From Clostridia bacterium (GTDB lineage: Bacteria; Bacillota; Clostridia; Oscillospirales; Acutalibacteraceae): a stretch of 64,000 nt of DNA. Positions 2,177-47,905 of the stretch are shown here, piece after piece. The stretch spans positions 1-64,000 of the forward strand of contig JAFRPB010000115.1 in the NCBI GenBank assembly GCA_017429345.1, given 5' to 3'. Numbering within the stretch: position 1 is the stretch's first letter; each line of letters starts with the position of its first letter. A program made the position numbers and the translations under genes. Under the pieces are notes generated by a model. The model saw nothing but the letters and a program-made list of their open reading frames with translations. It was not told the origin of the DNA and ran no database searches.

Positions 2177-2941
2177 TCAGGATTTACGCTCCCACGGCGT
2201 CAGGAGTTTCCGCAGCAGCGCGACGGCCGCCATCAGCGCAAGGGAGACGATCACGATCACCAGGATGACCGCGAACATCTTGTCAAAGGCGTACGCTTTT
2301 TTGACCTTCGTCATATAAACGCCGAGGCCCTCGAAGCCGCCGAGCCATTCCGCGATCACCGCGCCGACGATCGCGTAGGACGCGGAGATCTTGAGCCCCG
2401 AGAAAAACTGGTTCAGCGAGGCGGGGAATTTGATATAACGGAAGATCTTCAGATCCCCCGCGCCCATACTGCGCAGAAGCGAGATCTCGTCCGGATCGAC
2501 GCTCTTATATCCGTCCAGCAGCGCCACGGTGATCGGGAAAAACGTGGTCAGCACCACGAGCGCGATCTTCGGCTGCATGCCGTAGCCCATCCAGAGCACC
2601 AGCAGCGGCGCGATCGCGATGGTCGGGATCGTCTGCGAGATCACGAGCAGCGGATACCCCGCCTGATACAGCACGCGAAACCGGTCCATCAGCGAGGCAA
2701 ACACAAATGAAAGCGCCACGCCGATCGCAAGCCCCGCGAGGGATTCGATCAGCGTCGTTTTCAGGTGCCGCAGCAGCACGGGAGCCTCGCGCACCAGCGC
2801 GCTTCCCACTGCCGCCGGCGATGGCAGCATCGACGCGGGGATCGCCCCGAAGCCGCAGACCGCCGCCCACACGCCCACGAGCAGAGCGAGCGCGACGACC
2901 GGCGAGAGCTTATTCGTGATATTTCGATATTTTGCGGTCAA
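2177..2941 (-). CDS. thiX: ABC transporter permease, thiamine-precursor uptake (ThiX-like)
   Basis: The 254-residue integral membrane protein belongs to the BPD_transp_1 permeases of the SsuC/ThiX type, with about six hydrophobic segments and an EAA-type cytoplasmic loop (DPDEISLLRSMGAGDLKIF). The best start is a TTG at 2941, because the first membrane helix (NKLSPVVALALLVGVWAAV) lies just after it. The start overlaps the 3' end of the upstream thiamine-binding protein gene by 32 nt. With ThiY and ThiZ it forms a complete importer. Confidence 0.85.
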   Translation of the reverse strand: MTAKYRNITNKLSPVVALALLVGVWAAVCGFGAIPASMLPSPAAVGSALVREAPVLLRHLKTTLIESLAGLAIGVALSFVFASLMDRFRVLYQAGYPLLVISQTIPTIAIAPLLVLWMGYGMQPKIALVVLTTFFPITVALLDGYKSVDPDEISLLRSMGAGDLKIFRYIKFPASLNQFFSGLKISASYAIVGAVIAEWLGGFEGLGVYMTKVKKAYAFDKMFAVILVIVIVSLALMAAVALLRKLLTPWERKS

Positions 2942-29493: not shown

Positions 29494-30147
29494 ATGTCCT
29501 CTTATTTTTCACAAAAAACCGGAGACTTTCTCTGGGAGCTGGCGCTCAACAACGAGCGGCCCTGGTTTCAGGCGCACAAAGCGGAATTTGAGACCGTCGT
29601 CCACCGACCGTTAAAAACATTCGCGTTCGAAACGCTTGAGATCATGCGGGAGAGGTACCCCGAGGAGGATTTCGGGCTGCATATCAGCCGTATCTACCGC
29701 GACGCGCGCAGACTGTTCGGCAGAGGTCCGTTTAAAGAAAACATGTGGTTTACGATCAAGGACGGCGACCCGAAAGCCCAAGGGCCCTGCTTCTGGTTCG
29801 AGATCACGCCGTCGGACTTTTCTTACGGAATGGGGACCTGGGATATGACCGCGAAACAGGCGCAGAATTACCGCGACAGGATCGACGTCGCTCCCGCGCG
29901 GTTCGAACAGATGGTCCGGGACCTGCTCGCCCACGGCGACGTGCGTCTGTGGGGGGACGAATACAAGCGGGCAAAGGCGGACCGCGGCGCGATTCTGAAC
30001 CCGTGGTACAACCGGAAGACGATCAGCGTCGGCTATACTTTCGGTTACGATACGGAAATATCCCCCGACCGCCTCGCCCGGGACTTTGCACACTTTATGC
30101 CGATGTTTCATTTTTTGAGAGAGGTATGCGCGGAGTTGGAAGAGTAA
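29494..30147 (+). CDS. DUF2461 family protein
   Basis: A 217-residue cytoplasmic protein with the DUF2461 signature: FLWELALNNERPWFQAHKAEF near the start, the ISRIYRDARR segment, and a central WFEI strand. The biochemical role of this family is unknown. The ATG at 29494 follows AAAGGAG. Its stop codon TAA is the first part of a TAAATTCTGATTTATC repeat stem. Confidence 0.8.
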   Translation: MSSYFSQKTGDFLWELALNNERPWFQAHKAEFETVVHRPLKTFAFETLEIMRERYPEEDFGLHISRIYRDARRLFGRGPFKENMWFTIKDGDPKAQGPCFWFEITPSDFSYGMGTWDMTAKQAQNYRDRIDVAPARFEQMVRDLLAHGDVRLWGDEYKRAKADRGAILNPWYNRKTISVGYTFGYDTEISPDRLARDFAHFMPMFHFLREVCAELEE

Positions 30148-30443
30148 ATTCTGATTTATCGCGGAGCGATAAAGATAAATCAGAATTAAATAAGAAATGA
30201 AAAATGAAAAGTGAAAAATTAATGAAGGGGCTCCGCCCCTTACCCCAATTTATAGAAATGCGTTAAATTTACCTTTTGATAATAAAAAATCTCTGCGTAT
30301 ATTCTTTTCATCAAAATGTTCTGTTCTCACATTTATAATAAAAAGGCGCGCAGCGCTTTTCCGAAATTTTTCATTTTTCATTTTTCATTTTTCACTTAAA
30401 ATCTGATTTATCGGGGCGCAAGCGCCCCGATAAATCAGATTTT
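30145..30443. repeat. Nested inverted-repeat intergenic element, copy C (contains inverted core of copy A type)
   Basis: Outer arms AATTCTGATTTATC (30147-30160) / GATAAATCAGAATT (30174-30187) form one hairpin at the DUF2461 stop. Inner inverted arms of GAAAAATGAAAAGTG words (30193-30220 and 30364-30397) enclose a core. In the opposite orientation the core has the same CGGAAAAGCGC, CTTTTTATTATAA and GGGGTA-GGGGC landmarks as copies A and B. A final 22-bp perfect hairpin ends at 30443. Confidence 0.8.
30398..30443 (-). terminator. 22-bp perfect hairpin at the ytqA stop codon
   Basis: AAAATCTGATTTATCGGGGC and its extension GC pair perfectly with the sequence ending CCCGATAAATCAGATTTT. The TGA inside the stem is the ytqA stop codon. 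On the minus strand the hairpin ends in TTTT and may terminate transcription. Confidence 0.75.
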
Positions 30444-31337
30444 CCTCCCCTGTTCCACATCTCTTCTCACAAACTCCGCGTGAAGATAATTCAGCACCCG
30501 CTTCTTGTCGCCGCTCCACAGCGGGGCGAGGAGTTCTTTTTTATCCCCGTCGCCGGTGTAGCGGTGGACGACTGTTTCACGCGGCAGATATCCGATCAGA
30601 TCGCAGAGAAGATCCGCGTATTCCTCCAAAGATAAAACGTTAAACTCCCCCCGCTGGTACATCTGCGCGAGAACGGTATTTTTCAGAACGTGGGTCAGGT
30701 GCAGCTTCACGCCCTGAGCGCCGAGCGATCCGGCGTGCAGGACGGTGTTTTTCATATCTTCGCGCGTCTCGCCGGGCAGGCCGAGCATGATATGCGTCAC
30801 GACCTCAATCCCGCTTTCATGCAGCGCGCGGACGGCTTCGTCGTAAACGGCGGTCGGATAACACCGGTTGATCCGCCGCGCAGTCCCGTCGTTCGCGGTC
30901 TGCAGCCCGAGTTCGACCCAGACGGGCTTCTTTTCGTTCAGCTCCGCGAGCAGGTCGACCGTTTCGGGCGGCAGGCAGTCCGGTCGCGTCGCGATCGAAA
31001 GCGCGGCAACGTCCGGGCGCGAGATCGCCCGGGAAAACAGCTCCCGCAGCGCAGACAGCGGCGCGTAGGTATTCGTAAAGCTCTGGAAATAGGCGATATA
31101 CCCGCAGTTTTCCCCGGTTTTCGTTCGGATTTTTTCCTTTGCCGCAAAGAGCTTTTCGTCAAGGCTGTCTCCGCGCCCGGCGAAGTTCCCCGCGCCGCCG
31201 GCAGAGCAGAAGATGCATCCGCCGACGCCCGCCGTCCACTCACGGTTGGGGCAGGTAAAGCCGCAGTCCAGCGACAGCCGGTACATTTTTCTGCCGAAGC
31301 GCTCCCTCATCGCGCGGTCAAACGTATTGATATACAC
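30435..31337 (-). CDS. ytqA: TIGR01212 family radical SAM protein (YtqA/YhcC-like)
   Basis: The 300-residue protein has the unusual cluster motif of this family (LDCGFTCPNREWT then GGCIFCSAGG), the AYFQSFTNTYAPL segment and the RYTGDGDK tail typical of YtqA/YhcC. The family is cytoplasmic and linked to tRNA modification or electron bifurcation, though its reaction is not settled. The start is GTG at 31337 preceded by GGAAGGAGG. The stop codon lies in a repeat stem. Confidence 0.88.
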   Translation of the reverse strand: MYINTFDRAMRERFGRKMYRLSLDCGFTCPNREWTAGVGGCIFCSAGGAGNFAGRGDSLDEKLFAAKEKIRTKTGENCGYIAYFQSFTNTYAPLSALRELFSRAISRPDVAALSIATRPDCLPPETVDLLAELNEKKPVWVELGLQTANDGTARRINRCYPTAVYDEAVRALHESGIEVVTHIMLGLPGETREDMKNTVLHAGSLGAQGVKLHLTHVLKNTVLAQMYQRGEFNVLSLEEYADLLCDLIGYLPRETVVHRYTGDGDKKELLAPLWSGDKKRVLNYLHAEFVRRDVEQGRKI

Positions 31338-31415
31338 GCTCTCGGCCTCCTTCCCCGTGATCGGTCTGTATTATCATACCGCGTTCCGCCCTCAAAGTCA
31401 AACGGCGCTTCTTTA

Positions 31416-31445
31416 TTGACTTTCCGGCGCGGGATATGATATGAT
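31416..31445 (+). promoter_or_regulatory. Promoter of the first cotH-like gene
   Basis: TTGACT (31416-31421), 18-nt spacer, TATGAT (31440-31445). Confidence 0.65.
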
Positions 31446-31501
31446 AAAATCGTGAAAGAATGATCGAAATCTTCAGGTCCCCGAAGAAAGGAGCGTCCGG
31501 G

Positions 31502-33478
31502 ATGAAAAAAGCCGTCTGTCTTCTGCTGTGCGCGCTGTTTCTGACCGCGCTCTTTTCGCTTTCCGGCTGCCGGAAGGCGGACGGCGGCGTGCCGTTCTCC
31601 GTGCTCGCGGTCGGTAACGATCCGGACACACGGATCGACCTTTGGCTTGACGCGTCGGCGAATGTTTATTATCTTTTCCTGCCGGCGGATACGGACAGAT
31701 CCGCGCTGACCGTACTATGCGGAAACCGTGTGGAGATCGACGGCGCAGCCCTGACCGACGGCGAAGCGACGGACCTCTTTGCGGAAAAAAACGCCGCGGT
31801 GATGCGTTTCGGCGACAGAGAATATTCGCTGATCGTCTCGCAGTCGGCGAACGTCCCCGCGATATTCATCCGGACGGAAAGCGGCTCGCTCGACGCGATC
31901 CGGGCAGATAAGGATCATAAAGAATCCGCCGTGATGACCGTCTGCGAAAACGGCGGCACGACGCTGTCCGCCGCGCATCTCGCCTATATGAAAGGCCGGG
32001 GCGGCTCCACCTGGCTGAATTATGAAAAAAAACCCTACAACATAAAGTTTGAGGAAAAGACCGATCTGTTCGGCATGGGCAGCGCGAAAAAATGGGCGCT
32101 GCTCGCAGACGCGCAGCCGCTGGCCCGGATCAAGGAGCCTGCGGCGCTCGACCTCGCGCGGGAGATGAGCTTCGCATATACGCCCGAATACCGGCACGTC
32201 GACCTGTACGTCAACAGCGAATATCTGGGGCTTTACCGCGTCTGCGAAAAAGCCGAGGTCGGCGGTCAGCGGACGGATATCCCCGATCTGGACGACGCGA
32301 ACGCCGCGGCGAATCCAGACGTCAAAAGCGCCGGTCTTGCCTATGAGATCGTCCGGGCGGACGGGACCGTCGATACCGCCGAAGGAACGCTGCTTCCCGG
32401 CGGACGCCGCGCGGCGGCGTGGGAGAACGAGCCCGCGGATATCGCGAAAGGGTATCTTCTCGAGCTGACCGACCACGACGGCGGCGGGTGCGGCTTCCGC
32501 TCCCCGCGGGGCTTCCATATCGAGCTGACGAGCCCCGAATACGCGACCCGAAACGAGGCTTCGCTGATCGCGTCGCTTTACGCGGACGCGGAGGAAGCGC
32601 TGTTCTCCCCCGACGGCAGAAACGCGAAGGGGAAATATTATACCGATTACTTCGACCCGGTCTCCTTTGCCGATATGTATATCCTGCGGGAATACACGCT
32701 GGATCACGACGCGGGGAACCGCAGCATCTTCTTTTATAAACCGGCCGACGGCGAAACGCTGTACGCAGGCCCCGTCTGGGATTTCAACGCGACGTTCGCG
32801 CTGGATTACACGACGCTCGGGACTTCGCTGAACGATCCCGCCGCGCTCTGGATCGCGGCGAACTGCTATTTCAGCGAAACGACCGGGACAGACGGCGCCG
32901 GGCTCGACGGCATCCTGCCGTCGCTGTTCACCGCGCTTTACCGGCACGAGGATTTCCGCGCCGTCGTCGCCGCCCGCTGGGCGGAGCTCTCGCCGCGGTT
33001 CGACGAAGCGGCAGACAAAGCGTCCGCGCTGAACAAAAACCTGCGCGCCGCATCGCTTGCCGACCGGCTCCGGTGGGGCGCGCCCGTCGGAGATACCGAC
33101 GTCGCCGCGCTGACCGAATTCATGACGGCGCGCAAAGCCGCGCTTGACATAGCGTTTTCCGCGGACGGCGCGATGCTGTATTACGACGCGGGCGCGGGCG
33201 AGGGCTTCGCCGCGGAATCGAAGATCCTCCGCGTCGGGGATCCCGTCGCGCTCAGGGGCGTATTGGAAGAAACGCAGGAACAATTGCGGGCTGAGATCGA
33301 AAACGGCGTTTCCGTCCTGTCGCGGATCGACACGCTGATCACCCCGCCCTCCGATGATTACGAATTCGCCGGGTGGAACACAAAGCCCGACGGCAGCGGC
33401 GAAACGTATCAGCCCGGCGACGGGTTCACCGTGACGCAGACGACGACCGTGCTCTGGGCACAGTGGAAGAAAAAATAG
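31502..33478 (+). CDS. CotH-kinase family lipoprotein 1
   Basis: The 658-residue lipoprotein (lipobox LSGC, Cys23) has an N-terminal beta domain (about 30-160) followed by a CotH kinase domain. The domain includes MKGRGGSTWLNYEKKPYNIK, LLADAQPLARIKE, LYVNSEYLGLYRVCEKAEV, the DHDAGNRS motif and AGPVWDFN. CotH proteins are atypical ATP-dependent kinases; the Asp residues of the last two motifs are the likely metal ligands. The C terminus holds one Listeria-Bacteroides (InlB B-like) repeat, YEFAGWNTKPDGSGETYQPG. The ATG at 31502 follows AAAGGAG. It is the most divergent of three copies and keeps the most canonical active-site residues. Confidence 0.85.
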   Translation: MKKAVCLLLCALFLTALFSLSGCRKADGGVPFSVLAVGNDPDTRIDLWLDASANVYYLFLPADTDRSALTVLCGNRVEIDGAALTDGEATDLFAEKNAAVMRFGDREYSLIVSQSANVPAIFIRTESGSLDAIRADKDHKESAVMTVCENGGTTLSAAHLAYMKGRGGSTWLNYEKKPYNIKFEEKTDLFGMGSAKKWALLADAQPLARIKEPAALDLAREMSFAYTPEYRHVDLYVNSEYLGLYRVCEKAEVGGQRTDIPDLDDANAAANPDVKSAGLAYEIVRADGTVDTAEGTLLPGGRRAAAWENEPADIAKGYLLELTDHDGGGCGFRSPRGFHIELTSPEYATRNEASLIASLYADAEEALFSPDGRNAKGKYYTDYFDPVSFADMYILREYTLDHDAGNRSIFFYKPADGETLYAGPVWDFNATFALDYTTLGTSLNDPAALWIAANCYFSETTGTDGAGLDGILPSLFTALYRHEDFRAVVAARWAELSPRFDEAADKASALNKNLRAASLADRLRWGAPVGDTDVAALTEFMTARKAALDIAFSADGAMLYYDAGAGEGFAAESKILRVGDPVALRGVLEETQEQLRAEIENGVSVLSRIDTLITPPSDDYEFAGWNTKPDGSGETYQPGDGFTVTQTTTVLWAQWKKK

Positions 33479-33502
33479 ATCATACAATACGGAGGGACTC
33501 TT

Positions 33503-35536
33503 ATGAAACGCTTTCTCTGCCTGCTGCTCTGCGCCGCGCTTCTGACGGGCGGGCTTTGCGTTTCTCTGTCCGGCTGCACCCGAACGCCGTCGGCGCCGCC
33601 CTTCTGCGTGCTCGCCGTATCCGGCAACCGACGTACCCGCCTGACGCCCCGGTTCGATCAGAAGACCGGCGAATATCTCCTGTTTCTGCCCGAGGGAGTC
33701 GACCGCGGCGCTCTGACGGTCGACTGTGAAAAAGAGATCCTGATCGACGGCCGCGACCCCGCCGACAGCGGGACGGCCGGGCTGTTTACGGATACGGACG
33801 CGCACACGCTGTCCGTCGGAAAGAAAGAATACCCCCTGCGGGTGATCGGGACCGGCGACGTCCCCGCCGTATTCATTCAGACCGAATCCGGCTCTCTGGA
33901 TCATATCCATCGGGATAAGGAAAACAAAGAGGCCGCCCGGATCACGGTGATCGAAGACGGCAAAGTCACGCTGGACGGATCAAAGCTCGCCCACATCAAG
34001 GGGCGGGGCAACATGACGTGGAAAAACGAAAAAAAGCCGTACAATATAAAATTTGAAGAAAAAACCGCGCTTCTGGGCATGAATGCCGCGAAAAAATGGG
34101 CGCTTCTCGCCGACGCGGATCCGATGAGCTGCATCGCCGAGCCGGTCCTTTTCGGCCTCGCGCGGCAGACGGATCTTGCCTATACCCCCGAAAGCCGTCA
34201 CGCCGCGCTGTTTGTCAACGGGGAATATCTCGGCCTGTACCGCGTCAGCGAAAGAGTGCAGGTGGGGAAAAACAGACTGGATATCGACGATCTCGATAAA
34301 GCGAACGAAAAGGCGAACCCGCAGACGGATCTTTCCGCTCTGCCGAAAAAAAAGACCCTGCGCAGCGGCGAAGAAGGCTCCGGCGGCGACGTTCTGCAGC
34401 CGGGAGAGCGGCTGTGGTCTGAGGGGCTGCGCGATCCCGCAGATATCTCCGGCGGATACCTGCTCGAATTCGAATCAAGGGCAAGAGAAGCCGCGTTTTC
34501 GACCTCCCGCGGGCTGATCTTATCCCTGCGGTCGCCGGAATACGCCTCCCGCGGGGAGATCGACCTGATCGCGGATCTGTATCAGCGCGCCGAGGACGCG
34601 CTGTATTCCGAAGACGGATACAACGATCGGGGGGAACACTGGTCGGAGCTGTTCGACGTCGCCTCCTTTGCTTATCTGTATCTTCTTCAGGAATTCGGGG
34701 TCTGCGGCGAGGCGGAAAACTACGGCAGCACCTTTATTTACAAACCCGCGGGGGAAGACAGATTCTACGCGGGTCCCGTCTGGGACATGGGCAACGCCTG
34801 GTCGCTCTCCGAGCTGCCCGGGCTGCCCGTCCCGATCGAAAACGGCGGATTCCGATATACGAGCGCCATGACGGACTACGTGCAGCGCACCGACGCCGCC
34901 GGCAGGGTCACGTCCCTGGGGAGCATTCCCTCCTTTTTCAACGCGATGTTCCGCCGCGAGGAATTCCGCATCGCCGCGGCGGAGCGCTGGACGGCGCTGT
35001 CGGAGCCCGTCTCGAAGCTGCCGGACGCCGCCCGGGACCTGTTCGGCGCCCTGTCCTCCGCCATCGAGGCGGACGCGCGCCGATGGCAAACCGGCGAAGA
35101 GACCGGGGAGCTGCCGGCCGTACAGATCAGAAAACAATTCTCCGACCGGCTCGCCGTGATGCGCCGCCGGACCGACGCGCTGAACAAAGCATTTACGGAG
35201 GATGCGGCGGTATTGTATTATGACGCGAACGGCGGCGAAGGCGCGATGTCGCATCCGCAGTTTCTGCACATCGGCGATACCGCGACGCTTTCGACCTCCC
35301 GGATCGAAAATACGAACCAGACCGATCTTGTCAAAAAACTGCTTGAGTCCTCCGGGATGCCCTTTTTCCTCTCCGGTTTTTATTACGCGACGATCACCCC
35401 GCCCTCGCAGGAATATGAATTCGCCGGGTGGAACACAAAGCCCGACGGCAGCGGCGATATGTATCAGCCGGGAGAATCTTTCACCGTGACGCAGGCGACG
35501 GCCGTGCTCTGGGCGCAGTGGGCGCCGAAAGGATAA
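33503..35536 (+). CDS. CotH-kinase family lipoprotein 2
   Basis: The 677-residue lipoprotein (lipobox Cys25) has the same plan as its neighbour: beta domain, CotH kinase domain (IKGRGNMTWKNEKKPYNIK, LFVNGEYLGLYRVSERVQV) and C-terminal Listeria-Bacteroides repeat. In place of the DHDAGN motif of copy 1 it has CGEAENYGS, while GPVWDMGN is close to canonical, so activity may be reduced or altered. Its leader and several internal blocks are nearly identical in DNA to copy 3. It starts 24 nt after copy 1 with GGAGG and its stop overlaps a possible start of the next gene. Confidence 0.85.
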   Translation: MKRFLCLLLCAALLTGGLCVSLSGCTRTPSAPPFCVLAVSGNRRTRLTPRFDQKTGEYLLFLPEGVDRGALTVDCEKEILIDGRDPADSGTAGLFTDTDAHTLSVGKKEYPLRVIGTGDVPAVFIQTESGSLDHIHRDKENKEAARITVIEDGKVTLDGSKLAHIKGRGNMTWKNEKKPYNIKFEEKTALLGMNAAKKWALLADADPMSCIAEPVLFGLARQTDLAYTPESRHAALFVNGEYLGLYRVSERVQVGKNRLDIDDLDKANEKANPQTDLSALPKKKTLRSGEEGSGGDVLQPGERLWSEGLRDPADISGGYLLEFESRAREAAFSTSRGLILSLRSPEYASRGEIDLIADLYQRAEDALYSEDGYNDRGEHWSELFDVASFAYLYLLQEFGVCGEAENYGSTFIYKPAGEDRFYAGPVWDMGNAWSLSELPGLPVPIENGGFRYTSAMTDYVQRTDAAGRVTSLGSIPSFFNAMFRREEFRIAAAERWTALSEPVSKLPDAARDLFGALSSAIEADARRWQTGEETGELPAVQIRKQFSDRLAVMRRRTDALNKAFTEDAAVLYYDANGGEGAMSHPQFLHIGDTATLSTSRIENTNQTDLVKKLLESSGMPFFLSGFYYATITPPSQEYEFAGWNTKPDGSGDMYQPGESFTVTQATAVLWAQWAPKG

Positions 35537-35574
35537 TGAATGCGGGATCCCCCCGTCGGAAAGGATGTTGCACC

Positions 35575-37350: not shown

Positions 37351-37404
37351 TCACACAAACAGGGAATTTCGACTTTATAAAAACCGCTGCGCCGGTTTCC
37401 GAAA

Positions 37405-37460
37405 CCGACGACCGTGCTCCGGGCGCAGCGGAAGAAAAAACAGATCACACAAGGGAACCT
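37405..37460 (+). pseudogene. Relic of a cotH-like 3' end
   Basis: The stretch around 37411-37458 matches the last codons and the 3' flank of cotH copy 1 (33433-33486), including ACGACCGTGCTC, GGGCGCAGCGGAAGAAAAAA and CAGATCACACAA. The visible differences are transitions, and the stop codon TAG is CAG here. No open frame continues upstream from it. It looks like the remains of a further CotH gene removed by recombination. The rest of the gap 37351-37632 holds no gene. Confidence 0.65.
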
Positions 37461-37632
37461 CTGAATATTCGACGCATTCAGATCGCGAAAAGATTTTTTC
37501 GTCAGACGAAACAAAAAGCGGAGTTGATACTTTGTGTATTGACGAGCATTTTTGTAAAGCAAGACGAAAAAAGATCAAGTAAGATGACTGTGAGAGAATT
37601 TTCAGAGTTGACCGCGATACGGAGGGATCCTT

Positions 37633-39660: not shown

Positions 39661-39755
39661 GAAAAGTGAAAAGTGAAAAGTGAAATGTGAGAAGTGAAAT
39701 GTGAAATGTGAGAAGTGAAATGTGAAATGTGAGAAGTGAGAAGTGAACAGGTGAA
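39661..39755. repeat. Heptamer word array GARAWGT at the cotH3 stop codon
   Basis: Twelve consecutive 7-nt units (GAAAAGT, GAAATGT or GAGAAGT) run from 39661 to 39744, then two GTGAACAG-like units follow. The array begins at the first base after the TGA stop. No spacers are present, so it is not a CRISPR. Confidence 0.85.
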
Positions 39756-39787
39756 CAGAAGAAAGAGCCCCTGATCAACAGACGGCT

Positions 39788-39828
39788 CCGGCGGCGCGGA
39801 AAGATTTCCGCGCCGCCGGTTTTGTTGT
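39788..39828 (+). terminator. Terminator downstream of the cotH cluster
   Basis: CCGGCGGCGCGGAAA pairs with TTTCCGCGCCGCCGG and is followed by TTTTGTTGT. Confidence 0.8.
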
Positions 39829-39972
39829 CTGCACTCGCATGTATGTTTTTTCACACTTTTGCAACAATATTGTCACATTCCGCAGGCGGAGAGCCTATAT
39901 AATAGAATCAGATCATTGCGGGGTCATTTTAACAGGATCCTGACAGGATCCCGCGCAGAAAGGAGCTATTCT

Positions 39973-41856
39973 ATGAAAAAGATCATTTCCGTTCTTCTCG
40001 CGTGCGTGATGTGCCTGTCGGCGCTGACGCTCGCCGCCGGAGCCGAGGACGCGGAGGAGCCTCCCACCGTGGTCGTTTCTGCGAACGCCTCCGCCGTGGA
40101 ATCCTACGCGGCGCGGACGCTGCAGGGGTATCTCGCCCGGATCACCGGGACGGACGTTCCGCTCGTCACCGACGCGGACGCGTCGGGGGAAAACGAGATC
40201 GTCGTCGGCGCGACTTCGCGGCGGGCGATCGACGTCTCCGGTCTGCCGGACGGCGGCTACCGCATTATCAGCGAAAACGGCACGGTCTATATCGCGGGCA
40301 GCGGTTCCCGCGGCAACATCTACGGCGTGTTCGGCTTCCTTGAGAAATACTGCGGCTGTCACTGGTACGCCGCGGATGAATTCGTGATCCCCGAGGGCGC
40401 GGTCATCGTGCCCGACGGCGTCGATTATACCTATAAACCCTTCTTCGAATACACCGAGACCGACTGGCTCAGCCCGCGCAATACGGAATACTCCCTTGCG
40501 AACGGTCTGAACGGCAACAGCTACCGCTGGCTCTCCCCCGAGCAGGGCGGCAACGTCTGCTATATTTCGGGCTTCTGCCACACGCTGACCACGCAGTTCT
40601 GCGCGGAAGGGACGTATTTTGCGGAGCATCCCGAATATTACGCCCTTGTTGACGGCGAGCGTCAGCCAACGCAGCTTTGTCTTACGAATCCCGATGTGCT
40701 GCAGATCGTGACGAACGAAGTGCTCTCGCTTGCCGCGAGCCGTTACGATCCCTCGCAGGCGGTGCAGATCATCTCGCTCACGCAGGACGACAATCAGAAA
40801 TACTGCACCTGCGACAGATGCAAGGCTCTTGCCGCGGAATGCGGCGGCGCGCAGTCCGGCGTCATGCTGACCTTTATCAACAACGTCGCCCGCGCGGTCA
40901 AGGCGGCGGGTTACGACAATATCGCGATCGACACCTTCGCGTATCAGTACACCCGCAAGGCGCCGAAAAACGTCGTGCCCGACGATAACGTGATCGTCCG
41001 CCTGTGCTCCATCGAGTGCTGCTTCGGGCACGCGCTCGCCGATCCCGCCTGCGCGCAGAACGTCGATTTCATGAACGACCTCTCCGACTGGGGCAAGATC
41101 TGCAGCCGCATCTACGTCTGGGACTACGCGACCAACTACAGCCAGACGCTCAATCCCTTCGCGGATTTCGAGGTGCTGCAGAAGAATATGCAGACCTTCT
41201 ATGAAAACGGCGTCAAGGGCATGTACGTCGAGGGCGCGTATTACGTCGGCGCGGTCAACGGCGAGTTCGCCGACCTGCGCAGCTACATGATTTCGAAATT
41301 CATGCAGGATCCCTACTGCGATTACGACGAGGTCGTCAACGGCTTCCTCGCGGCGTATTACGGCGGCGGCTGGCAGAGCATCCGCGAATTCATCGACCTG
41401 ATCTGCGACAAATGCGTCACAAAGACCCGTCATATGGGCATCTATCAGGCGCCGCAGGAATCCCTGCCCGCGATGACGCTGAAGGATATTTCGGACGCCG
41501 ACGAAATGTGGCTGAACGCAAAGGAGAACGCGGGCAGCGAAAAGGCGCTCGCGCGCGTGGAGCGCAGCGAGATCTGCTGGCGCTTCTGGAAAGCGAACAA
41601 CAATAAGGGCGAATTCGCGTTCACGAAAGGCTTTGTCAAAGTCCTCGACGCGCGCGAGCAGCTTTACAACGACCTGGTCGAAAACGGCGTCACGATCCTC
41701 GGCGAGGGCGGCAACCGCGCCCTGACGACCGAGCGTCAGCAGTATCTGCTCACGCCGCCGCGCGAGTGGGACGATGAGCGCATCGGCAACGTCTTCGTGC
41801 GCTGGCTCGCCCCGCTGCTGCTGTGGATGTATCAGATGTGTAAGGACAGAGCGTAA
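39973..41856 (+). CDS. Secreted DUF4838-domain protein, glycoside hydrolase-like
   Basis: The 627-residue protein has a signal peptide (1-24) and an N-terminal GH-N-like domain (VVVSANASAVESYAARTLQG; SGSRGNIYGVFGFLEKYCGC HW when read continuously). The catalytic-type DUF4838 barrel follows, with ISLTQDDNQKYCTCDRCKAL and ERSEICWRFWKA. This family is found with glycan-degrading loci, and its N-terminal fold matches the alpha-glucuronidase/hexosaminidase N-domain; the substrate is unknown. The CxCxxC cluster is typical of the family. The ATG at 39973 follows AAAGGAGCT. A TATAAT near 39897 may belong to its promoter. The stop codon lies in the stem of a 20-bp hairpin. Confidence 0.8.
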   Translation: MKKIISVLLACVMCLSALTLAAGAEDAEEPPTVVVSANASAVESYAARTLQGYLARITGTDVPLVTDADASGENEIVVGATSRRAIDVSGLPDGGYRIISENGTVYIAGSGSRGNIYGVFGFLEKYCGCHWYAADEFVIPEGAVIVPDGVDYTYKPFFEYTETDWLSPRNTEYSLANGLNGNSYRWLSPEQGGNVCYISGFCHTLTTQFCAEGTYFAEHPEYYALVDGERQPTQLCLTNPDVLQIVTNEVLSLAASRYDPSQAVQIISLTQDDNQKYCTCDRCKALAAECGGAQSGVMLTFINNVARAVKAAGYDNIAIDTFAYQYTRKAPKNVVPDDNVIVRLCSIECCFGHALADPACAQNVDFMNDLSDWGKICSRIYVWDYATNYSQTLNPFADFEVLQKNMQTFYENGVKGMYVEGAYYVGAVNGEFADLRSYMISKFMQDPYCDYDEVVNGFLAAYYGGGWQSIREFIDLICDKCVTKTRHMGIYQAPQESLPAMTLKDISDADEMWLNAKENAGSEKALARVERSEICWRFWKANNNKGEFAFTKGFVKVLDAREQLYNDLVENGVTILGEGGNRALTTERQQYLLTPPREWDDERIGNVFVRWLAPLLLWMYQMCKDRA

Positions 41857-41895
41857 ATATTGAATGAACGGCAAGGCCGTTCATTCAATATTTAC
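41853..41895. terminator. 20-bp perfect hairpin at the DUF4838 stop codon
   Basis: GTAAATATTGAATGAACGGC (41853-41872) pairs perfectly with its complement at 41876-41895 around an AAG loop. The TAA stop of the upstream gene is inside the first arm. No T-run follows, so termination efficiency is uncertain. Confidence 0.7.
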
Positions 41896-41896
41896 C

Positions 41897-42243
<347 letters not shown>

Positions 42244-42289
42244 TTGAGAGGTCGAAGACCTCGATAGACCAACCACCCTCCCCACTTTT

Positions 42290-43237
42290 ATGAACTCAAA
42301 ACCAAAACTCAAACCCTTCCTCGGGCCGGCGATCCTGCTGGTCGGCTCGGTCATCTGGGGCTCGTCGTTCGTCGCACAGAGCGACGGCGGCGTGATCGGC
42401 TCCTTCACGTTCCAGGGGCTGCGCAACACGCTGGCGTTTCTCTCGATCGGCGTCGCCGTTCTCGTCAACGAAAAGCTCCTGCGGCGCAAAGCGCCGCGTC
42501 CCCGATACGCCGGCGTCAGGGATTACGTCGCGAAAAACCGCGACCAGCTCAAAGCGGGTCTTCTTTGCGGGATCTTCCTTTTCATCGCGACGATCACGCA
42601 GCAGGTCGGCATCGACATGAACGGCACCGGCGTCTCCGTCGGCAGGGCGGGCTTCCTGACCGCGCTGTATATCGTGCTTGTGCCCGTGTTCGGCGTCGTG
42701 ATCGGCAGAAAGGTCACCCTCAAGGCGTGGATCAGCGTCGCGATCGCCGTGGGCGGCATGTATCTGATCTCCGTCAAGCCCGGCGCGGGCGGCGGCATTT
42801 CGCTTGCGGACGGGCTGATGATCGTCTGCGCGGCGTTTTTCTCGATGCAGATCCTTACGGTCGACGCGTTCTCTCAGAAGACGGACGGTCTGCGGCTCGC
42901 CGGCACGGAATTTCTGATCTGCGCGATCCTCGCCCTCGCGGGGATGTTTCTCTTTGAGAAGCCCGACCCGGCGCAGATCAACCGGTACTGGCCGTCGATC
43001 TTCTACTCCGGCGTGATGTCCGGCGGCTTCGGCTATACGCTGCAGATCCTCGGGCAGAAATACACGAAACCCGTGCTCGCGTCGCTGCTGATGAGCCTTG
43101 AGTCTGTCTTCTCCGCGCTTTCGGACTGGATCATCCGCGGCAACGCGCTCTCCGCGATGGAGCTTGCCGGGTGCGCGGTGATGTTCGCCGCGGTCATCCT
43201 CGCACAGATCCCTGATATCAAAAGGAAAACAAAGTGA
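42290..43237 (+). CDS. EamA/DMT-superfamily transporter
   Basis: The 315-residue membrane protein has two EamA repeats of about five helices; the start LGPAILLVGSVIWGSSFVAQ and the C-terminal SVFSALSDWIIRGNALSAMELAGCAVMF match drug/metabolite exporters. The substrate is unknown. The start is set by family homology, but no Shine-Dalgarno site precedes it: the 50 nt upstream are the edge of repeat element copy B plus a small GAGGTC-GAA-GACCTC hairpin. It lies 13 nt before the GtrA gene. Confidence 0.85.
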   Translation: MNSKPKLKPFLGPAILLVGSVIWGSSFVAQSDGGVIGSFTFQGLRNTLAFLSIGVAVLVNEKLLRRKAPRPRYAGVRDYVAKNRDQLKAGLLCGIFLFIATITQQVGIDMNGTGVSVGRAGFLTALYIVLVPVFGVVIGRKVTLKAWISVAIAVGGMYLISVKPGAGGGISLADGLMIVCAAFFSMQILTVDAFSQKTDGLRLAGTEFLICAILALAGMFLFEKPDPAQINRYWPSIFYSGVMSGGFGYTLQILGQKYTKPVLASLLMSLESVFSALSDWIIRGNALSAMELAGCAVMFAAVILAQIPDIKRKTK

Positions 43238-43250
43238 AAGGATCGTTTTT

Positions 43251-43784
43251 ATGGCAAACGAAGCTCAAAAATTTACTGAAAAACACGGCGAACTCTGGAA
43301 ATTCATCAAATTTTCCTTCGCGGGCGTCAGCTCCTTTGTGGTGCAGTATCTATTCGACCTGCTGTTCCATTTCGTCATATTCAAAGGGCTGCAGGGCAGG
43401 ACGATTGACAGCGCGCTCTTCCGGTTCCTCGGCATCGACAGCCAGATGGACGCGGCGCTCGCGTATCTGATCGCCGCGACCATCGGTTACGCAGTCTCGT
43501 ACATGATGAACCGCAAGGTCACGTTCAATTCCAGCGCAAACCTTGCGCGCTCGATCATCCTCTACGTCGTGATGGTCGTCGCGACGATCTTCATAACTGC
43601 GTGGCTCAAGGGCTGGCTCGTGCAGATGGCGGTCGACAAAGGCTTCGTCAACGAGGACGGCACGATCACCTGGCTTGCCGACACGATCATCTTCATCGTA
43701 ACCGTGACGCTCCCCTTCGTTTGGACCTATCCGCTGCAGAGATTCGTTATCAACCCGCCGCAGAAAAAAGCCAAGGAAGGATAA
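43251..43784 (+). CDS. GtrA-like family membrane protein
   Basis: A 177-residue protein with four membrane helices. WKFIKFSFAGVSSFVVQYLFD at the start and YAVSYMMNRKVTFNSS in the middle match the GtrA/DPMS family, which flips or positions lipid-linked sugars for surface polysaccharide assembly. GAAAGGATC precedes the ATG; the gene is probably co-transcribed with the EamA transporter. Confidence 0.85.
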   Translation: MANEAQKFTEKHGELWKFIKFSFAGVSSFVVQYLFDLLFHFVIFKGLQGRTIDSALFRFLGIDSQMDAALAYLIAATIGYAVSYMMNRKVTFNSSANLARSIILYVVMVVATIFITAWLKGWLVQMAVDKGFVNEDGTITWLADTIIFIVTVTLPFVWTYPLQRFVINPPQKKAKEG

Positions 43785-43832
43785 AGCGAAAAACGTCCGC
43801 GCCGCGTATTTCACGGCGTGGGCGGTTTTGTA

Positions 43833-43861
43833 TTGACAAATCATTCCGAGTATACTATATT
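43833..43861 (+). promoter_or_regulatory. Promoter of the acyltransferase cluster
   Basis: TTGACA (43833-43838), 17-nt spacer, TATATT (43856-43861). Confidence 0.75.
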
Positions 43862-43919
43862 TGTTATGTTGTAGAACTATGAAATGCTCCGTTCATTTTC
43901 ATCTGAAGGAGGCGTTCCC

Positions 43920-45041
43920 ATGACAAAAAAAGCGCTGCCGAAGCGCAACGGAGAAATCGATTTCTGGAAATTCGTTGCGTCGATCTATATCGTTTTGTTT
44001 CATTCCAGAGCCTTCTATAACCCGGATCTTTTCCGCGGGGCGATGGCGCTGCCGGTGGAATTCTTTTTCGTCGTCAGCGGTTTTTTCTTTGCCTCATCTG
44101 TATATCGGGACCAACGTGAATTCAACAGCCGCACCATCGGTCAGGAGACCGTAGGCTTTATTTGGCATAAGATCAAAGGCTTCCTTTACTATTTTCTGTT
44201 CGGTTTCGGATTTTCTCTTATTGCGGTGGTGTACCGCTACGGTCCCGCGTACCTGTTTACGCTGGAACGGATCAAAAATATCGTTTTTGAGTTTTTCCTC
44301 ATTAACACCCTGACTTCAACATCGTCTTCGATCATCCCGGCCGACTGGTATCTCTCGACGATGCTGACCGCGATGTTTTTCCTGTATCCGTTGTTCCGCT
44401 GTAAAAAAGATATTTTCTCCGCATATATCGCTCCGCTGGTGGGTATCGGCGGGCTCGGCTATCTGATGTTTAAATACGGCGTGATCGCTGCGGGAGCCGA
44501 CGGCGTTTTCCCGTCAAAGGGGCTGATCCGCGCGATCGTCAGCATCTGTCTCGGCGTGGCAGCCTACCGCGTCTCCGAAGAACTGAAGAAGAAAGAATTC
44601 GGCCGCTTCGGCATTGCCGTCTGTTCCGGGATCGGCGCCGTCTCCGTTCTCGGCGCATTCATTCTGTTTATTAAAATGCCGAAGGAGATTCAGGCGTTCG
44701 CCGTTATGCTCTGCGCGGTGTTCGTCGCGGTATCGGCAAGCGGGAAATCCGTATTCAGCAAAATGTTCCCCGCCGCGCTCTGTCAGAAGCTCGGGGAATT
44801 CAGCCTCTCGCTTTATCTCGGACATTCCGCCGTAAGAACCGCAATTCAGGGATTCAACAAACACCACACCATTCTGAAGCCGTATTTCAAGAACGGAGAT
44901 AAGCAGTGGATCGGCGTATTGATCTACCTTGCCGGGTCCTGTATTCTCGCTGTTGTTATGATCTATATGAACAAGCTGCTGAAAAAAATACTTGACGCAA
45001 GAAAAGAAGCAAAGACGCCCCACTCGGTCACGGTAGAATAA
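43920..45041 (+). CDS. Acyltransferase family 3 membrane protein, copy 1
   Basis: The 373-residue polytopic protein starts KRNGEIDFWKFVASIYIVLFHS, the conserved first helix with its catalytic-type His, followed by LPVEFFFVVSGFFFA. It belongs to the Acyl_transf_3 family (OafA/WecH type) that O-acylates surface glycans from a cytoplasmic donor. About ten helices are present. The ATG at 43920 follows GAAGGAGG. It is the first of three tandem paralogues. Confidence 0.85.
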   Translation: MTKKALPKRNGEIDFWKFVASIYIVLFHSRAFYNPDLFRGAMALPVEFFFVVSGFFFASSVYRDQREFNSRTIGQETVGFIWHKIKGFLYYFLFGFGFSLIAVVYRYGPAYLFTLERIKNIVFEFFLINTLTSTSSSIIPADWYLSTMLTAMFFLYPLFRCKKDIFSAYIAPLVGIGGLGYLMFKYGVIAAGADGVFPSKGLIRAIVSICLGVAAYRVSEELKKKEFGRFGIAVCSGIGAVSVLGAFILFIKMPKEIQAFAVMLCAVFVAVSASGKSVFSKMFPAALCQKLGEFSLSLYLGHSAVRTAIQGFNKHHTILKPYFKNGDKQWIGVLIYLAGSCILAVVMIYMNKLLKKILDARKEAKTPHSVTVE

Positions 45042-45065
45042 AAAAAGATTTTTGAGGAGTCAAAT

Positions 45066-46175
45066 ATGTCAGAAACTGTTTCCAAACGCAACGGCGAAAT
45101 TGATTTATGGGTTTTCATTTTCTCCATTATACTGTTTTTTTCTCATACAGGCAAAACGATCGGAGGAAAAACGCTTTTTGCAAGAAGCTATCTTGTTGTT
45201 GATTTTTTCCTTTTTCTTGCAGGATACTGGCTTGCAAACCGGATACGAACCGATATGCGCTCCGGCAGTCTCACACCTACGGACTGTTTAATGAGAAGAA
45301 CGCTTTCTGTTTTTTACAAAGCGTTTTTCGCCTCTTTTATAATCGGTTTTTTATGTACCGAAATAACAGAGAAAACGCCGATTCTGACGATGCTGAAGAA
45401 TCTGATGCTCAGCACACATGAGATCGGGTTATCCAGAATGTACGGCTTGAACATTCTGCAGGATTTCAACGTGCCGACGTGGTTTTTTTCTGCCCTGCTG
45501 ATTGCGTTTGTTCTTCTATACCCGCTCGGGAAGAAATACAGGCGCCCGTTTTTTACGGTTGCCTGTCCCGTAATCGCGCTGAGCTGTTATGCTTATTTGC
45601 TGCAGACATTCCATACGATTAACGTCAGAGAAGACGTCTCGCTCGGCAATTTTGTTCTCGCGGGGGTGCTGCGGGCGATCGCCGACGTGTCGCTCGGTAT
45701 GTTTTTGAACGAATGCTGCGCTCTCGTGCAGGAAAAGGGCTTCCGACCGTCCCGTTTCGCTTCATTCGTGTTTTTCGTTTGCAAAGCTCTTTGTCTTGCT
45801 TTGATTTTTTTCTACTTCAATATCGCGAAAAAATATCGTTGGGGCAAAAAAATGGACTTCATCCTCGCATTTTTCTTGCTTTTATTTTGTTTCCTGGTTT
45901 TGTCGGAGCTGACGGGGTTCAAAAAGCTCTTCCGAACAGATCGGTTTTCCGTATTATCGAAAATCAGCCTGTATCTTTTCCTGTCTGTCGGAATTGCCGA
46001 AAAAATCGTTCTGTCGGTCTGCACCAAAGAGAACCCCGGAAGAAATCTGCTCATTTATGCGATCCTTACGATAGCGGTAATGCTGCTGTGCCGTGTCCTG
46101 GTGTTGTCGTTTGACTTTTTTGGGAAGCGCGTCTTTCCGAAGATTAAAAGCATAATGTTTGAGAAAACGACTTGA
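45066..46175 (+). CDS. Acyltransferase family 3 membrane protein, copy 2
   Basis: The 369-residue paralogue begins KRNGEIDLWVFIFSIILFFSHTG, which has the same first-helix motif, and has VVDFFLFLAGYWLANRIR. About ten membrane helices. GAGGAGT precedes the ATG, 24 nt after copy 1. Its DNA is more AT-rich than the window average, as is copy 3, suggesting a different origin from copy 1. Substrate unknown. Confidence 0.8.
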   Translation: MSETVSKRNGEIDLWVFIFSIILFFSHTGKTIGGKTLFARSYLVVDFFLFLAGYWLANRIRTDMRSGSLTPTDCLMRRTLSVFYKAFFASFIIGFLCTEITEKTPILTMLKNLMLSTHEIGLSRMYGLNILQDFNVPTWFFSALLIAFVLLYPLGKKYRRPFFTVACPVIALSCYAYLLQTFHTINVREDVSLGNFVLAGVLRAIADVSLGMFLNECCALVQEKGFRPSRFASFVFFVCKALCLALIFFYFNIAKKYRWGKKMDFILAFFLLLFCFLVLSELTGFKKLFRTDRFSVLSKISLYLFLSVGIAEKIVLSVCTKENPGRNLLIYAILTIAVMLLCRVLVLSFDFFGKRVFPKIKSIMFEKTT

Positions 46176-46187
46176 CGGGGGGCGCTT

Positions 46188-47318
46188 ATGAAAACAAAAA
46201 AATTGTCCGCTGCTTATAACCCCGAGGTTGACTTCTGGAAATTCTTTTTTGCCGTGATTATTTTCGTCTTTCATTCCGGCGGAATAATAAACGGCGGGAA
46301 TCCGATCAAATTGGGCTATCTCGGCGTTGAGTTTTTCTTTATTGTAAGCGGTTATTTCCTTGCCGCCAAGGTTCGGTCCGATGAAGCCCGCGGCGTTCGC
46401 ACCCCGACAAGTGAATTTATGAAACGGAAAATCAGCGGGATCTACAGACCGTTTCTCGCTGCGTTTATTATTGCGTTCACGACGCGCTGTATTGCTGCTG
46501 ACTTGCCGTTTATCGATACGCTCAAAAATCTGCTGTTAAGCTTATTTGAGGTGTTGCTCGTTCGTATGTACGGTTTTCCCGGATACAATATGAACAACGG
46601 TCCGACTTGGTATATTTCTTCCATGATGATCGCGATGGTCATGCTGTACCCACTGATGGCAAAATACCGGCGTCCGTTTCTTCGGATCGCCTGCCCCGTG
46701 ATCACGCTTTTCTTTTACGGATACTATGCTCAGAGGGCGAACGGGATCGGCTTCTCCCCTGCGGATAAGGTTTCGCTGCTGATTTTTTCCGGCTATACGA
46801 TCCGTGCGTTTCCCGGTCTGTGCCTCGGCGCTTTTGTCAATGAATGCTGCGCCTTAATAAAAGAACGGAAAATACGAACGACAAAAGCTGGCTGCATTGT
46901 TTTTGCCGGTGCGGAGCTGTTAGCCCTCGCATGGATCCTTTTTTATATGATTTTCGCATATAAATTAAAATGGGCTGCCGTATGTATGTATTCCATGCCC
47001 GCGGCATTGGCGTTCTTCTGTTTCATCGTGTTTTCAGAATTGACCGGAATAAAACGGCTCCTGCGGGGAATAGATTTTTCCGTTTTTTCAAAGCTGAGCC
47101 TATATCTGTATTTATCTCACAGAGTAATTCTCAGACTGCTCGACGGAAAAACGCAGGGGATGTCAAACCTGAAAATCTACGCAATATACATAGGCCTGAC
47201 GCTCTGCTCCATGGCATTGTGCAGACTGCTCGTTTTTCTGTTCGATCTGTATACCGAAAAGTGCTCGCCGAAGATCAAAAACCTGTTCCGCCGGGAGGAC
47301 GTCGTCATTGATTTTTGA
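46188..47318 (+). CDS. Acyltransferase family 3 membrane protein, copy 3
   Basis: The 376-residue paralogue begins YNPEVDFWKFFFAVIIFVFHSG and continues LGVEFFFIVSGYFLAAKVR. It shares NECCALIKERKIR and SLYLYLSHRVILRLL with copy 2, so copies 2 and 3 are each other's closest relatives here. A GGGGGGCG ribosome site lies upstream, 12 nt after copy 2. It is followed by a region of repeats rather than another gene. Confidence 0.8.
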   Translation: MKTKKLSAAYNPEVDFWKFFFAVIIFVFHSGGIINGGNPIKLGYLGVEFFFIVSGYFLAAKVRSDEARGVRTPTSEFMKRKISGIYRPFLAAFIIAFTTRCIAADLPFIDTLKNLLLSLFEVLLVRMYGFPGYNMNNGPTWYISSMMIAMVMLYPLMAKYRRPFLRIACPVITLFFYGYYAQRANGIGFSPADKVSLLIFSGYTIRAFPGLCLGAFVNECCALIKERKIRTTKAGCIVFAGAELLALAWILFYMIFAYKLKWAAVCMYSMPAALAFFCFIVFSELTGIKRLLRGIDFSVFSKLSLYLYLSHRVILRLLDGKTQGMSNLKIYAIYIGLTLCSMALCRLLVFLFDLYTEKCSPKIKNLFRREDVVIDF

Positions 47319-47387
47319 CTGTCAGCGCACAATACTTGCCGAAACCACCGCCCCGCAGACGATTTCACGATATTACGGTTTCTTGAT

Positions 47388-47757
47388 GCGTAACGAGCGT
47401 AACGAGCGTAACATTCGTAATATTTTTCATGCGGGCAGCGGGAAAAAACTAAATACATCATACATATATTACGGGAAAAAGCCCTCGCGCCTCCCGACCG
47501 AAACGTATATCACGGAAACAGATTCCGAACGTCCGTTCATCGTCGTCTGTTTCCGTGGTTTTTGTTATGAATATCGGTTTTTCCGCCGAAAGACGATATT
47601 CAGGAAAACGTAAATGAGAAAAAGACCCCTTGAATCATCCTTGCACCCGCGGAATCGGAACCCGGCGCCGCGCCGCCGGATAATGTTACGCTCGTTACGC
47701 TTGTTACGCTCGTTACGGTCGTTACGCTCGTTACGGTCGTTACGCTCGTTACGCAAC
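47388..47757. repeat. Inverted 9-bp word arrays (GTTACGCTC)n around a 260-nt core
   Basis: The left arm has about three and a half units of GAGCGTAAC (47388-47420). The right arm has eight consecutive 9-nt units GTTACGCTC, GTTACGGTC or GTTACGCTT (47685-47756). The arms are inverted relative to each other. The core holds a terminator but no convincing gene; its landmarks differ from copies A-C. Confidence 0.85.
47511..47564 (+). terminator. Hairpin with 12-bp perfect stem and T-run
   Basis: CACGGAAACAGA (47511-47522) pairs with TCTGTTTCCGTG (47546-47557), followed by GTTTTTG. It may end transcription from the acyltransferase genes. Confidence 0.55.
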
Positions 47758-47759
47758 AG

Positions 47760-47905
47760 GAAATTCTGATTTATCGGGATAAAGGCAATAGGCATTAGGT
47801 AAAGACCGCGGCGCACAGCGTATATTTGACAGGTCTATTGCCTGATGCCCAATGCCTAATGCCTGTAAATTCTGATTTATCGCTCCGCGATAAATCAGAA
47901 TTTAC
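47760..47905. repeat. Nested inverted-repeat element at the spoIIE stop codon
   Basis: From outside to inside: AAATTCTGATTTATCGGGAT (47761-47780), a GGCAATAGGCATTAGG word arm (47784-47799), a 37-nt core, the inverted word arm ATTGCCTGATGCCCAATGCC (from 47837) and a 19-bp perfect hairpin GTAAATTCTGATTTATCGC / GCGATAAATCAGAATTTAC with TCC loop (47865-47905). The spoIIE stop codon TGA is provided by the hairpin stem. Confidence 0.8.

What the first reader, a model, noticed from the sequence alone, without database searches (positions are those of the whole stretch)
30145..47905. TTCTGATTTATC stems sit exactly at gene stop codons and supply the stop
The ytqA stop (30435) and the spoIIE stop (47895) are both the TGA inside a TCTGATTTATCG stem of a perfect hairpin, and the DUF2461 stop TAA (30145-30147) immediately abuts the same motif. 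A further 20-bp hairpin of different sequence includes the DUF4838 stop (41854-41856). An element that places itself at the 3' end of unrelated genes and replaces their stop codon and terminator is unusual.
Basis: seen in the sequence. Interest (0 to 1): 0.75.

Follow-up and report, generated by a model that had tools for sequence, protein, structure and literature searches.

The report
Repeated hairpins supplying genes' stop codons
A short repeated DNA palindrome scattered through the genomes of some rumen Clostridia sits exactly on the ends of unrelated genes and provides the signal that ends their proteins; similar cases are known from pneumococcus and Coxiella, but this family is unusually strict about where it sits.

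Summary
The palindrome (T)AAATTCTGATTTATC - short stem/loop - GATAAATCAGAATTT(A) occurs 36 times as an exact hairpin in the window's 3.78-Mb genome, in 4 of 7 genomes of the genus and in 0 of 53 other relatives. Among 159 hairpins, 78 gene ends lie within about 14 nt; in 66 the stop is one of two inside the element's first ten bases, TAAATTCTGA (37 TAA, 29 TGA). No gene reads through in the third frame. In the window's genome 24 of 41 testable hairpins supply a stop, 0.5 expected by random placement. Hairpin-bearing orthologues end at the same codon (18 of 20); those without are often a few residues longer. Best reading: a lineage-specific, REP/MITE-like palindromic repeat tolerated at gene 3' ends because it carries its own stop, often joined by heptamer-repeat cassettes. 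"Replaces the terminator" is not supported: no T-tract. The DUF4838 hairpin is single-copy, probably a diverged relative. Pneumococcal BOX and Coxiella QMITE repeats are published precedents, so this is a new variant of a known kind. How it moves and whether it acts in mRNA are inferred.

The parts
30145..30187 (+). Hairpin 1: TAAATTCTGATTTATC...GATAAATCAGAATT; its TAA (30145-30147) is the stop of the DUF2461 gene 29494-30147
30188..30397 (.). AT-rich insert between hairpins 1 and 2: heptamer array (AAATGAA, 30195-30219), core with GCGCGCAGCGC, inverted heptamer array (ATTTTTC, 30366-30394)
30398..30443 (-). Hairpin 2: AAAATCTGATTTATCGGGGCGC stem; read from the ytqA side AAAATC-TGA, TGA 30437-30435 is the ytqA stop (protein ends ...GRKI*)
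41853..41895 (+). Diverged single-copy hairpin GTAAATATTGAATGAACGGC; TAA 41854-41856 is the stop of the DUF4838 gene
41897..42242 (.). Heptamer-flanked insert (AATTCGG x4.6 ... AATTCCG x4.6) next to the DUF4838 hairpin
47764..47775 (+). Solo half-site TTCTGATTTATC, direct repeat of the near arm of hairpin 3
47776..47863 (.). Cassette with inverted GGCATTA-type heptamer arrays between the half-site and hairpin 3
47864..47906 (-). Hairpin 3: TGTAAATTCTGATTTATCGC stem; TGA 47897-47895 is the spoIIE stop (protein ends ...KRCKF*)
1986..1997 (+). Half-site TTCTGATTTATG of a further copy (one mismatch)
2154..2187 (-). Degenerate copy, GTAAATCC-TGA-ATCGCC read on the minus strand; TGA 2179-2177 is the stop of the gene 2177-2941(-); CGATATC heptamers lie at 2126-2149 beside it
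   Evidence: read by eye

Best explanation
This is a genus-restricted, non-autonomous palindromic repeat (REP/MITE-like) whose two ends both read (T)AAATTCTGATTTATC inward. The first ten bases, TAAATTCTGA, contain a stop in two of the three frames: TAA directly, or AAA-TTC-TGA, which adds Lys-Phe. Copies that land at or within a few codons of a native stop therefore end the protein cleanly and are tolerated. Because the element is a palindrome, it can do this for genes on both sides. Copies in the read-through frame or deep inside genes are removed. The RNA would fold into a strong hairpin directly on the stop codon, most likely acting as a 3'-end structure rather than a canonical terminator. 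The arms also flank, as direct repeats, secondary cassettes bordered by heptamer arrays. SHOWN by sequence: the repeat, its lineage restriction, the two stop phases, conservation of the position between species, C-terminal differences, mirrored arm changes, cassette arrangement. INFERRED: past mobility, the enzyme, purifying selection on the third frame, RNA function, and what keeps the arms identical (RNA constraint or template-switch correction).
For: The exact hairpin occurs 36 times in G000, in 4 of 7 genus genomes, in 0 of 53 others. Pooled, 159 unique hairpins have 78 gene ends within -14..+12 nt: 29 TGA and 37 TAA at the element's own stops, 12 at +2..+11. No gene is found that reads on and ends up to 450 nt past the arm. 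All 37 at the TAA phase are TAA, against 125 of 293 stops away from hairpins (p = 2e-14). Half-sites outside hairpins also do it in the G000 sample: 14 of 34, all in the same orientation. Hairpins lie in 14 of 40 convergent gaps and 3 of 34 divergent ones (Fisher p = 0.011). Presence/absence at orthologous stops: the L146 gene ends FKF* with the hairpin, FES* and FRA* without it in G002 and G003; the L177 gene (nth-like by my reading) ends ICDF* or ICKF* with it and is 3-9 residues longer without it in G003-G005. Lengths: hairpin against no-hairpin orthologue, 13 of 33 equal, 15 shorter, 5 longer; controls without hairpin, 37 of 60 equal, 10 shorter, 13 longer. AAA before TTCTG is conserved on all sides, so these bases belong to the element. 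A complete TIR form with a longer interior is seen in L018.
Against: No transposase was found with these ends: of five Y1-transposase loci in the genus none carries the exact motif; other transposase families were not searched. No clean target-site duplication was found, and T before AAA is only 60% on plain flanks. The hairpin is at the same codon in 18 of 20 hairpin-bearing orthologue pairs, which also fits old vertical inheritance with little present mobility. Tolerance alone does not obviously explain why positions a few tens of bases past a stop are so much rarer than the stop itself. Excess shortening (15:5 against 10:13) is modest, and the pairs are not independent. At least 81 of 159 hairpins have no gene end within 12 nt.
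Confidence: 0.62

Rival explanations
1. Not mobile elements but transcription terminators or mRNA 3'-end hairpins that arose in place and are inherited with their genes, with a conserved outer stem because a protein or RNase binds it. The tight fit to the stop codon reflects Firmicute-style uncoupled transcription, in which terminators sit close to stops.
For: Position conserved in 18 of 20 hairpin-bearing orthologue pairs. More frequent in convergent than divergent gaps. Very stable RNA folds, -15.6 to -34.7 kcal/mol, z -4.6 to -8.5. Arm changes are compensated: 10 symmetric deviants against about 2-3 real asymmetric ones. B. subtilis terminators lie only a few nucleotides past stops (PMC7858274, passage read).
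Against: No T-tract, and none of the four is among the terminator-like hits. The 16 T-tailed terminators my scan found in the same sample never overlap a stop, median distance 19 nt. Unpaired half-sites also supply stops. Orthologues in G001/G004/G005 have no such hairpin. One-sided intermediates such as G-U pairs are rare, which RNA selection alone would not predict.
Confidence: 0.2
2. The 12-bp arm is the crossover site of a cassette-type recombination system. Cassettes with heptamer arrays are captured as direct repeats beside a hairpin attachment site parked at gene ends.
For: In distinct clusters that hold a cassette, 22 of 24 have the direct-repeat arrangement, including one tandem pair. 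The same gene end carries different cassettes in different species.
Against: Cassettes are about 90-320 bp, none shown to carry a gene. No recombinase was looked for or seen linked. Tandem duplication or nested insertion gives the same pattern. attC features were not tested.
Confidence: 0.1
3. DNA uptake sequences in terminator-like inverted pairs, as in Neisseria.
For: A 12-mer often in inverted pairs after genes; the DUS precedent is described in PMC2397512 (passages read).
Against: About 198 copies in 3.78 Mb, a density well below neisserial DUS (recalled). In the sampled 410 kb 0 of 71 perfect hairpins lie inside genes, and in that sample no half-site faces a gene end in the other orientation.
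Confidence: 0.03
4. Artefact of gene calling or chance.
For: The gene caller was my own codon-usage script and the loci were chosen around hairpins.
Against: Stop positions are set by the reading frame, not by start choice; null 0.50 of 41 against 24 observed; orthologous proteins agree to the last residues.
Confidence: 0.02

Closest known systems
Pneumococcal BOX, RUP and SPRITE repeats (PMC3049150, passages read)
   Same: Small interspersed repeats of one lineage; in 36 cases BOX encodes the stop of a CDS; SPRITE hairpins are enriched at CDS 3' ends.
   Different: Different sequence and modules. Here the stop comes from two fixed phases of the palindrome's first ten bases, the hairpin alone is often the whole unit, and no T-rich tail follows.
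Coxiella QMITE1/QMITE2 (PMC5896051, passages read)
   Same: TIR elements overlapping the 3' ends of functional genes by a few bases, thought to be tolerated there.
   Different: Other sequences and a different make-up. No two-phase stop is described in the passages I read, and one case there extends the protein.
REP / GTAG palindromes with RAYT transposases (PMC3733652, passages read)
   Same: 20-40 bp palindromes, mainly downstream of coding regions, between convergent or unidirectional genes.
   Different: No GTAG-type tag in the consensus seen here, and no linked Y1 transposase.
Mycobacterial MIRUs (PMC12548453, one passage read)
   Same: Repeats inserting at a gene boundary codon with little effect on expression.
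   Different: According to that passage MIRUs insert at start codons and carry an ORF; these elements supply stops and carry none that I saw.
Neisserial DUS terminators (PMC2397512, passages read)
   Same: Short word in close inverted pairs after genes.
   Different: Low copy number, and hairpins not in coding DNA in the sample.

Membership tests
REP (repetitive extragenic palindrome) | Short palindromic repeat in many copies, extragenic | tested here: met
   36 exact hairpins in G000; 0 of 71 perfect hairpins of the 410-kb sample inside genes
REP (repetitive extragenic palindrome) | GTAG (or CGTC) tag at one end | tested here: not met
   Flank base counts show (T)AAATTCTG on both sides, no GTAG or CGTC tag
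REP (repetitive extragenic palindrome) | RAYT (Y1) transposase linked to the repeats | tested here: not met
   Five Y1_Tnp loci in 4 of 7 genus genomes; no TCTGATTTATC in any of those loci
MITE | Terminal inverted repeats flanking a non-coding interior | tested here: met
   Solo hairpins and the about 270-bp L018 form with inverted ends
MITE | Target-site duplication | tested here: inconclusive
   No uniform duplication; T at -4 is 60% on plain flanks and 28% after retained stops
MITE | Partner transposase sharing the ends | not tested
   Only the Y1 family was searched; other transposase families were not
Intrinsic terminator | GC-rich stem followed by a T-tract | tested here: not met
   None of the four window hairpins among 36 terminator-like sites
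Intrinsic terminator | Ends transcripts in vivo | not testable with these tools
   needs Term-seq
DNA uptake sequence | Many copies spread through coding and non-coding DNA | tested here: not met
   Hairpins extragenic in the sample, copy number low
DNA uptake sequence | Needed for DNA uptake | not testable with these tools
   needs transformation assays
Integron attC / cassette system | Recombinase and attC structure | not tested
   only the direct-repeat arrangement was counted

The most novel reading that the evidence does not exclude
The palindrome is actively targeted to stop codons (to their T, or to whatever marks the end of translation) rather than merely tolerated there. It turns gene 3' ends into reusable docking sites whose outer arms and reading phase are kept across species while inner stem and cassette are exchanged, and template-switch correction keeps the two arms identical.
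Probability: 0.13. Interest if true: 0.78.

Novelty: new variant of a known kind. Interest (0 to 1): 0.47.

Why it matters
It is a clear, countable case of a repeat settling at the one place in a dense genome where insertion costs little, by carrying its own stop in two frames. It gives a natural data set for asking whether position comes from targeting or from selection, and how perfect palindromes stay symmetric while they diverge. It also warns that ends of proteins annotated from these rumen MAGs (...KF*) can be repeat-derived, and that contigs break at these repeats.

Tried and rejected
TA target duplication (mariner-type): considered because (T)AAATTCTG...CAGAATTT(A) could hide a TA duplication. 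Rejected as a general rule because T at -4 is only 60% on plain flanks and 28% after retained stops. RAYT partner: rejected. Known RNA family: Rfam gave only two chance-level matches (E 0.55 and 0.57) in window 29900-48100. DUF4838 hairpin as a second repeat family: its arm word occurs only at this locus in 7 genus genomes, so it is a diverged relative at most; 14 of 200,000 shuffles reach its 15/19 match. Uptake sequence: see rival 3. A paper search on heptanucleotide arrays with palindromes (listing only) gave nothing on Clostridia that I could see. Searches for a described repeat that supplies stops: (listings), then passages as cited; others (TRIP1, passages; stem-loops in prokaryotes, passages) gave related but different repeats; (template switching) was seen as a listing only. 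I did not find this palindrome described, but sequences were not searchable in text.

Limits of the counts. Gene calls are from my own script. Loci were picked around hairpins. Only part of the window's genome (410 kb of 3.78 Mb) was read for hairpin statistics. One search counts distinct sequences with exact arms only. Orthologue pairs come from few genes and are not independent; labels genes by motif words near the stop. In one search, 20 of 27 gene ends gave a usable orthologue.
Full report
WHAT WAS CLAIMED AND WHETHER IT IS THERE. All four coincidences exist at the stated coordinates. The ytqA-like gene ends at TGA 30437-30435(-) and spoIIE at TGA 47897-47895(-), each inside a perfect hairpin whose arms contain (A/T)TCTGATTTATC. 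The DUF2461 gene ends at TAA 30145-30147, whose last base is the first base of a 14-bp palindrome. The DUF4838 gene ends at TAA 41854-41856 inside a 20-bp hairpin of different sequence. Pfam supports the gene names. The hairpins fold strongly as RNA (z -4.6 to -8.5).

GENOME-WIDE. The window is part of a 251-contig, 3.78-Mb genome. TCTGATTTATC occurs 97 + 101 times on the two strands, the reversed control 0. The paired form occurs 36 times; it is present in 4 of the 7 genus genomes searched and in 0 of the 53 other relatives. The outer stem is constant; the inner stem and loop vary between palindromic versions. When arms deviate from consensus they do so on both sides together: 10 symmetric cases against about 2-3 genuine asymmetric ones (some pairs listed there are chance pairings or interrupted hairpins).

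THE STOP CODON. In the sampled part of the window's genome (410 kb), 44 hairpins of the family gave 27 gene ends within -13..+10 nt: 12 are AAATTC|TGA, 14 are TAA|ATTCTG, 1 lies 4 nt before the arm, none elsewhere. Pooled over all groups, 159 unique hairpins gave 78 such gene ends: 29 TGA and 37 TAA at these two positions, and 12 at +2 to +11. No gene was found that runs through a hairpin and ends within 450 nt beyond. Sliding each hairpin at random within its own gap predicts 0.50 of 41 in these phases; 24 are seen, and the largest of 20,000 simulations is 5. All 37 at the TAA phase use TAA although only 125 of 293 stops away from hairpins do (p = 2e-14). Half-sites that are not in hairpins behave the same way in this sample: 14 of 34 supply a stop, always with the gene running into TTCTGATTTATC. 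The sequence TAAATTCTGA thus carries stops in two frames, and the third frame is not found at gene ends.

WHOSE BASES ARE THEY. AAA before TTCTG is conserved at 62-100% per base on every kind of flank, including plain intergenic and cassette sides, so it belongs to the element. The T before it is 60% on plain flanks, 46% in the TGA class and 28% after retained stops. So the TAA stop is made from the element's AA and a T that may come from either side, while the TGA is wholly the element's.

COMPARISON BETWEEN SPECIES. I looked at orthologous 3' ends of 27 gene ends, 3 of them in the window; 20 of 27 gave a usable orthologue. ytqA in G002 carries the hairpin at the same stop with a mirrored arm variant (TACTG...CAGTA). 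SpoIIE ends ...KRCKF* here and ...RKSKF* in G002, where the second arm has decayed. It ends ...KKR*...KKAS*...HKRA* without the hairpin in G003, G001/G004 and G005, and in G006 a hairpin follows ...RRKK*. The L160 gene ends ...KF* in three species whose hairpins have three different inner stems. For the L174 gene the G003 orthologue keeps only a right half-site, whose TAA is now the stop (the opposite orientation to that in the G000 sample). For the L146 gene the relatives G002 and G003 without a hairpin stop at the same codon. For the L177 gene relatives without it are 3-9 residues longer in G003, G004 and G005. In numbers (pairs not independent): hairpin against hairpin, 18 of 20 equal length. 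Hairpin against none, 13 of 33 equal, 15 shorter, 5 longer. Neither, 37 of 60 equal, 10 shorter, 13 longer (one an outlier of 431). So the position is conserved where the hairpin is shared, and carrying it goes with a slightly shortened C terminus, more in the TGA phase than in the TAA phase by inspection.

SURROUNDINGS. On the side away from the gene the flank is often a 7-bp tandem array: 28 of 72 opposite flanks against 0 of 78 gene-side flanks reach a period-7 match of 0.6, with 0 for periods 6 and 8. Cassettes of about 90-320 bp, often with inverted heptamer arrays, lie between the hairpin and a further half-site. In 22 of 24 distinct clusters with a cassette the half-sites are direct repeats, including one tandem pair in L171. 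The window's 47764-47906 is one of these. L018 holds a complete form with inverted ends about 270 bp apart, whose first bases stop the upstream gene. Gaps between convergent genes carry a hairpin in 14 of 40 cases, tandem in 20 of 151, divergent in 3 of 34 (the sample was chosen around hairpins).

IS IT A TERMINATOR? The sequence does not say so. None of the four is among the 36 terminator-like sites. The 16 T-tailed terminators that my scan found in the same sample start after the stop, median 19 nt, and 0 of 16 overlap it. In Firmicutes terminators can lie very near stops (PMC7858274, passage read, citing Johnson et al. 2020, which I did not read), so a 3'-end role remains possible.

THE DUF4838 HAIRPIN. 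Its 14-mer occurs only here in 7 genomes. Yet TAAATATTGAATGAACGGC matches the family variant TAAATTCTGATTTAACGGC at 15 of 19 bases, with the differences mirrored in the other arm since the arms pair perfectly; 14 of 200,000 shuffles do as well. I take it as a diverged copy, with moderate confidence.

WHAT IT IS. I favour a REP/MITE-like palindromic repeat that has settled at gene ends because it brings its own stop (0.62). Mobility is inferred from copy number, lineage restriction and presence/absence, not seen directly, and no enzyme was found. In-place terminators held by selection (0.20) and a cassette recombination system (0.10) remain open. Published precedents exist: BOX encodes the stop of 36 pneumococcal CDSs and QMITEs overlap gene ends in Coxiella. 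The new points are the two-phase stop with no third-frame cases, mirrored arm divergence and the heptamer cassettes.

Noticed in passing
window 3231-3504, 39661-39763, 41897-42242, 52466-52497, 54868-54899: Intergenic regions are full of 7-bp tandem arrays of many different unit sequences (AATTGAC, GAAAAGT, AATTCGG, TGCGTTT, ATCGGAC), some as inverted pairs around a shared core (GGAAAAGCGCTTCGCGCC); the array at 39661 starts directly after the stop at 39660.
   Followed up: partly
window 1986-2187: Degenerate further copy with half-site, CGATATC heptamers and a TGA that ends the gene 2177-2941(-) in the same phase.
   Followed up: partly
window 47685-47754: 9-bp tandem repeat GTTACGCTC, 7.8 copies, next to the spoIIE element.
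   Followed up: no
L001, L003, L009, L017, L022, L029, L030: Many contigs of the genome begin or end within a few hundred bases of the motif, several in longer repeats starting TTCTGATTTATCGGGATGTTTCCCGCGG or similar; the assembly seems to break at these elements.
   Followed up: partly
L210, L216 (G003, G002), downstream of the aligned genes: Arrays of short palindromes separated by CATATCGA words follow some gene ends in place of the heptamer cassettes.
   Followed up: no
window 11674-24687 (-): A single open frame of 4337 codons, a very large protein not examined.
   Followed up: no
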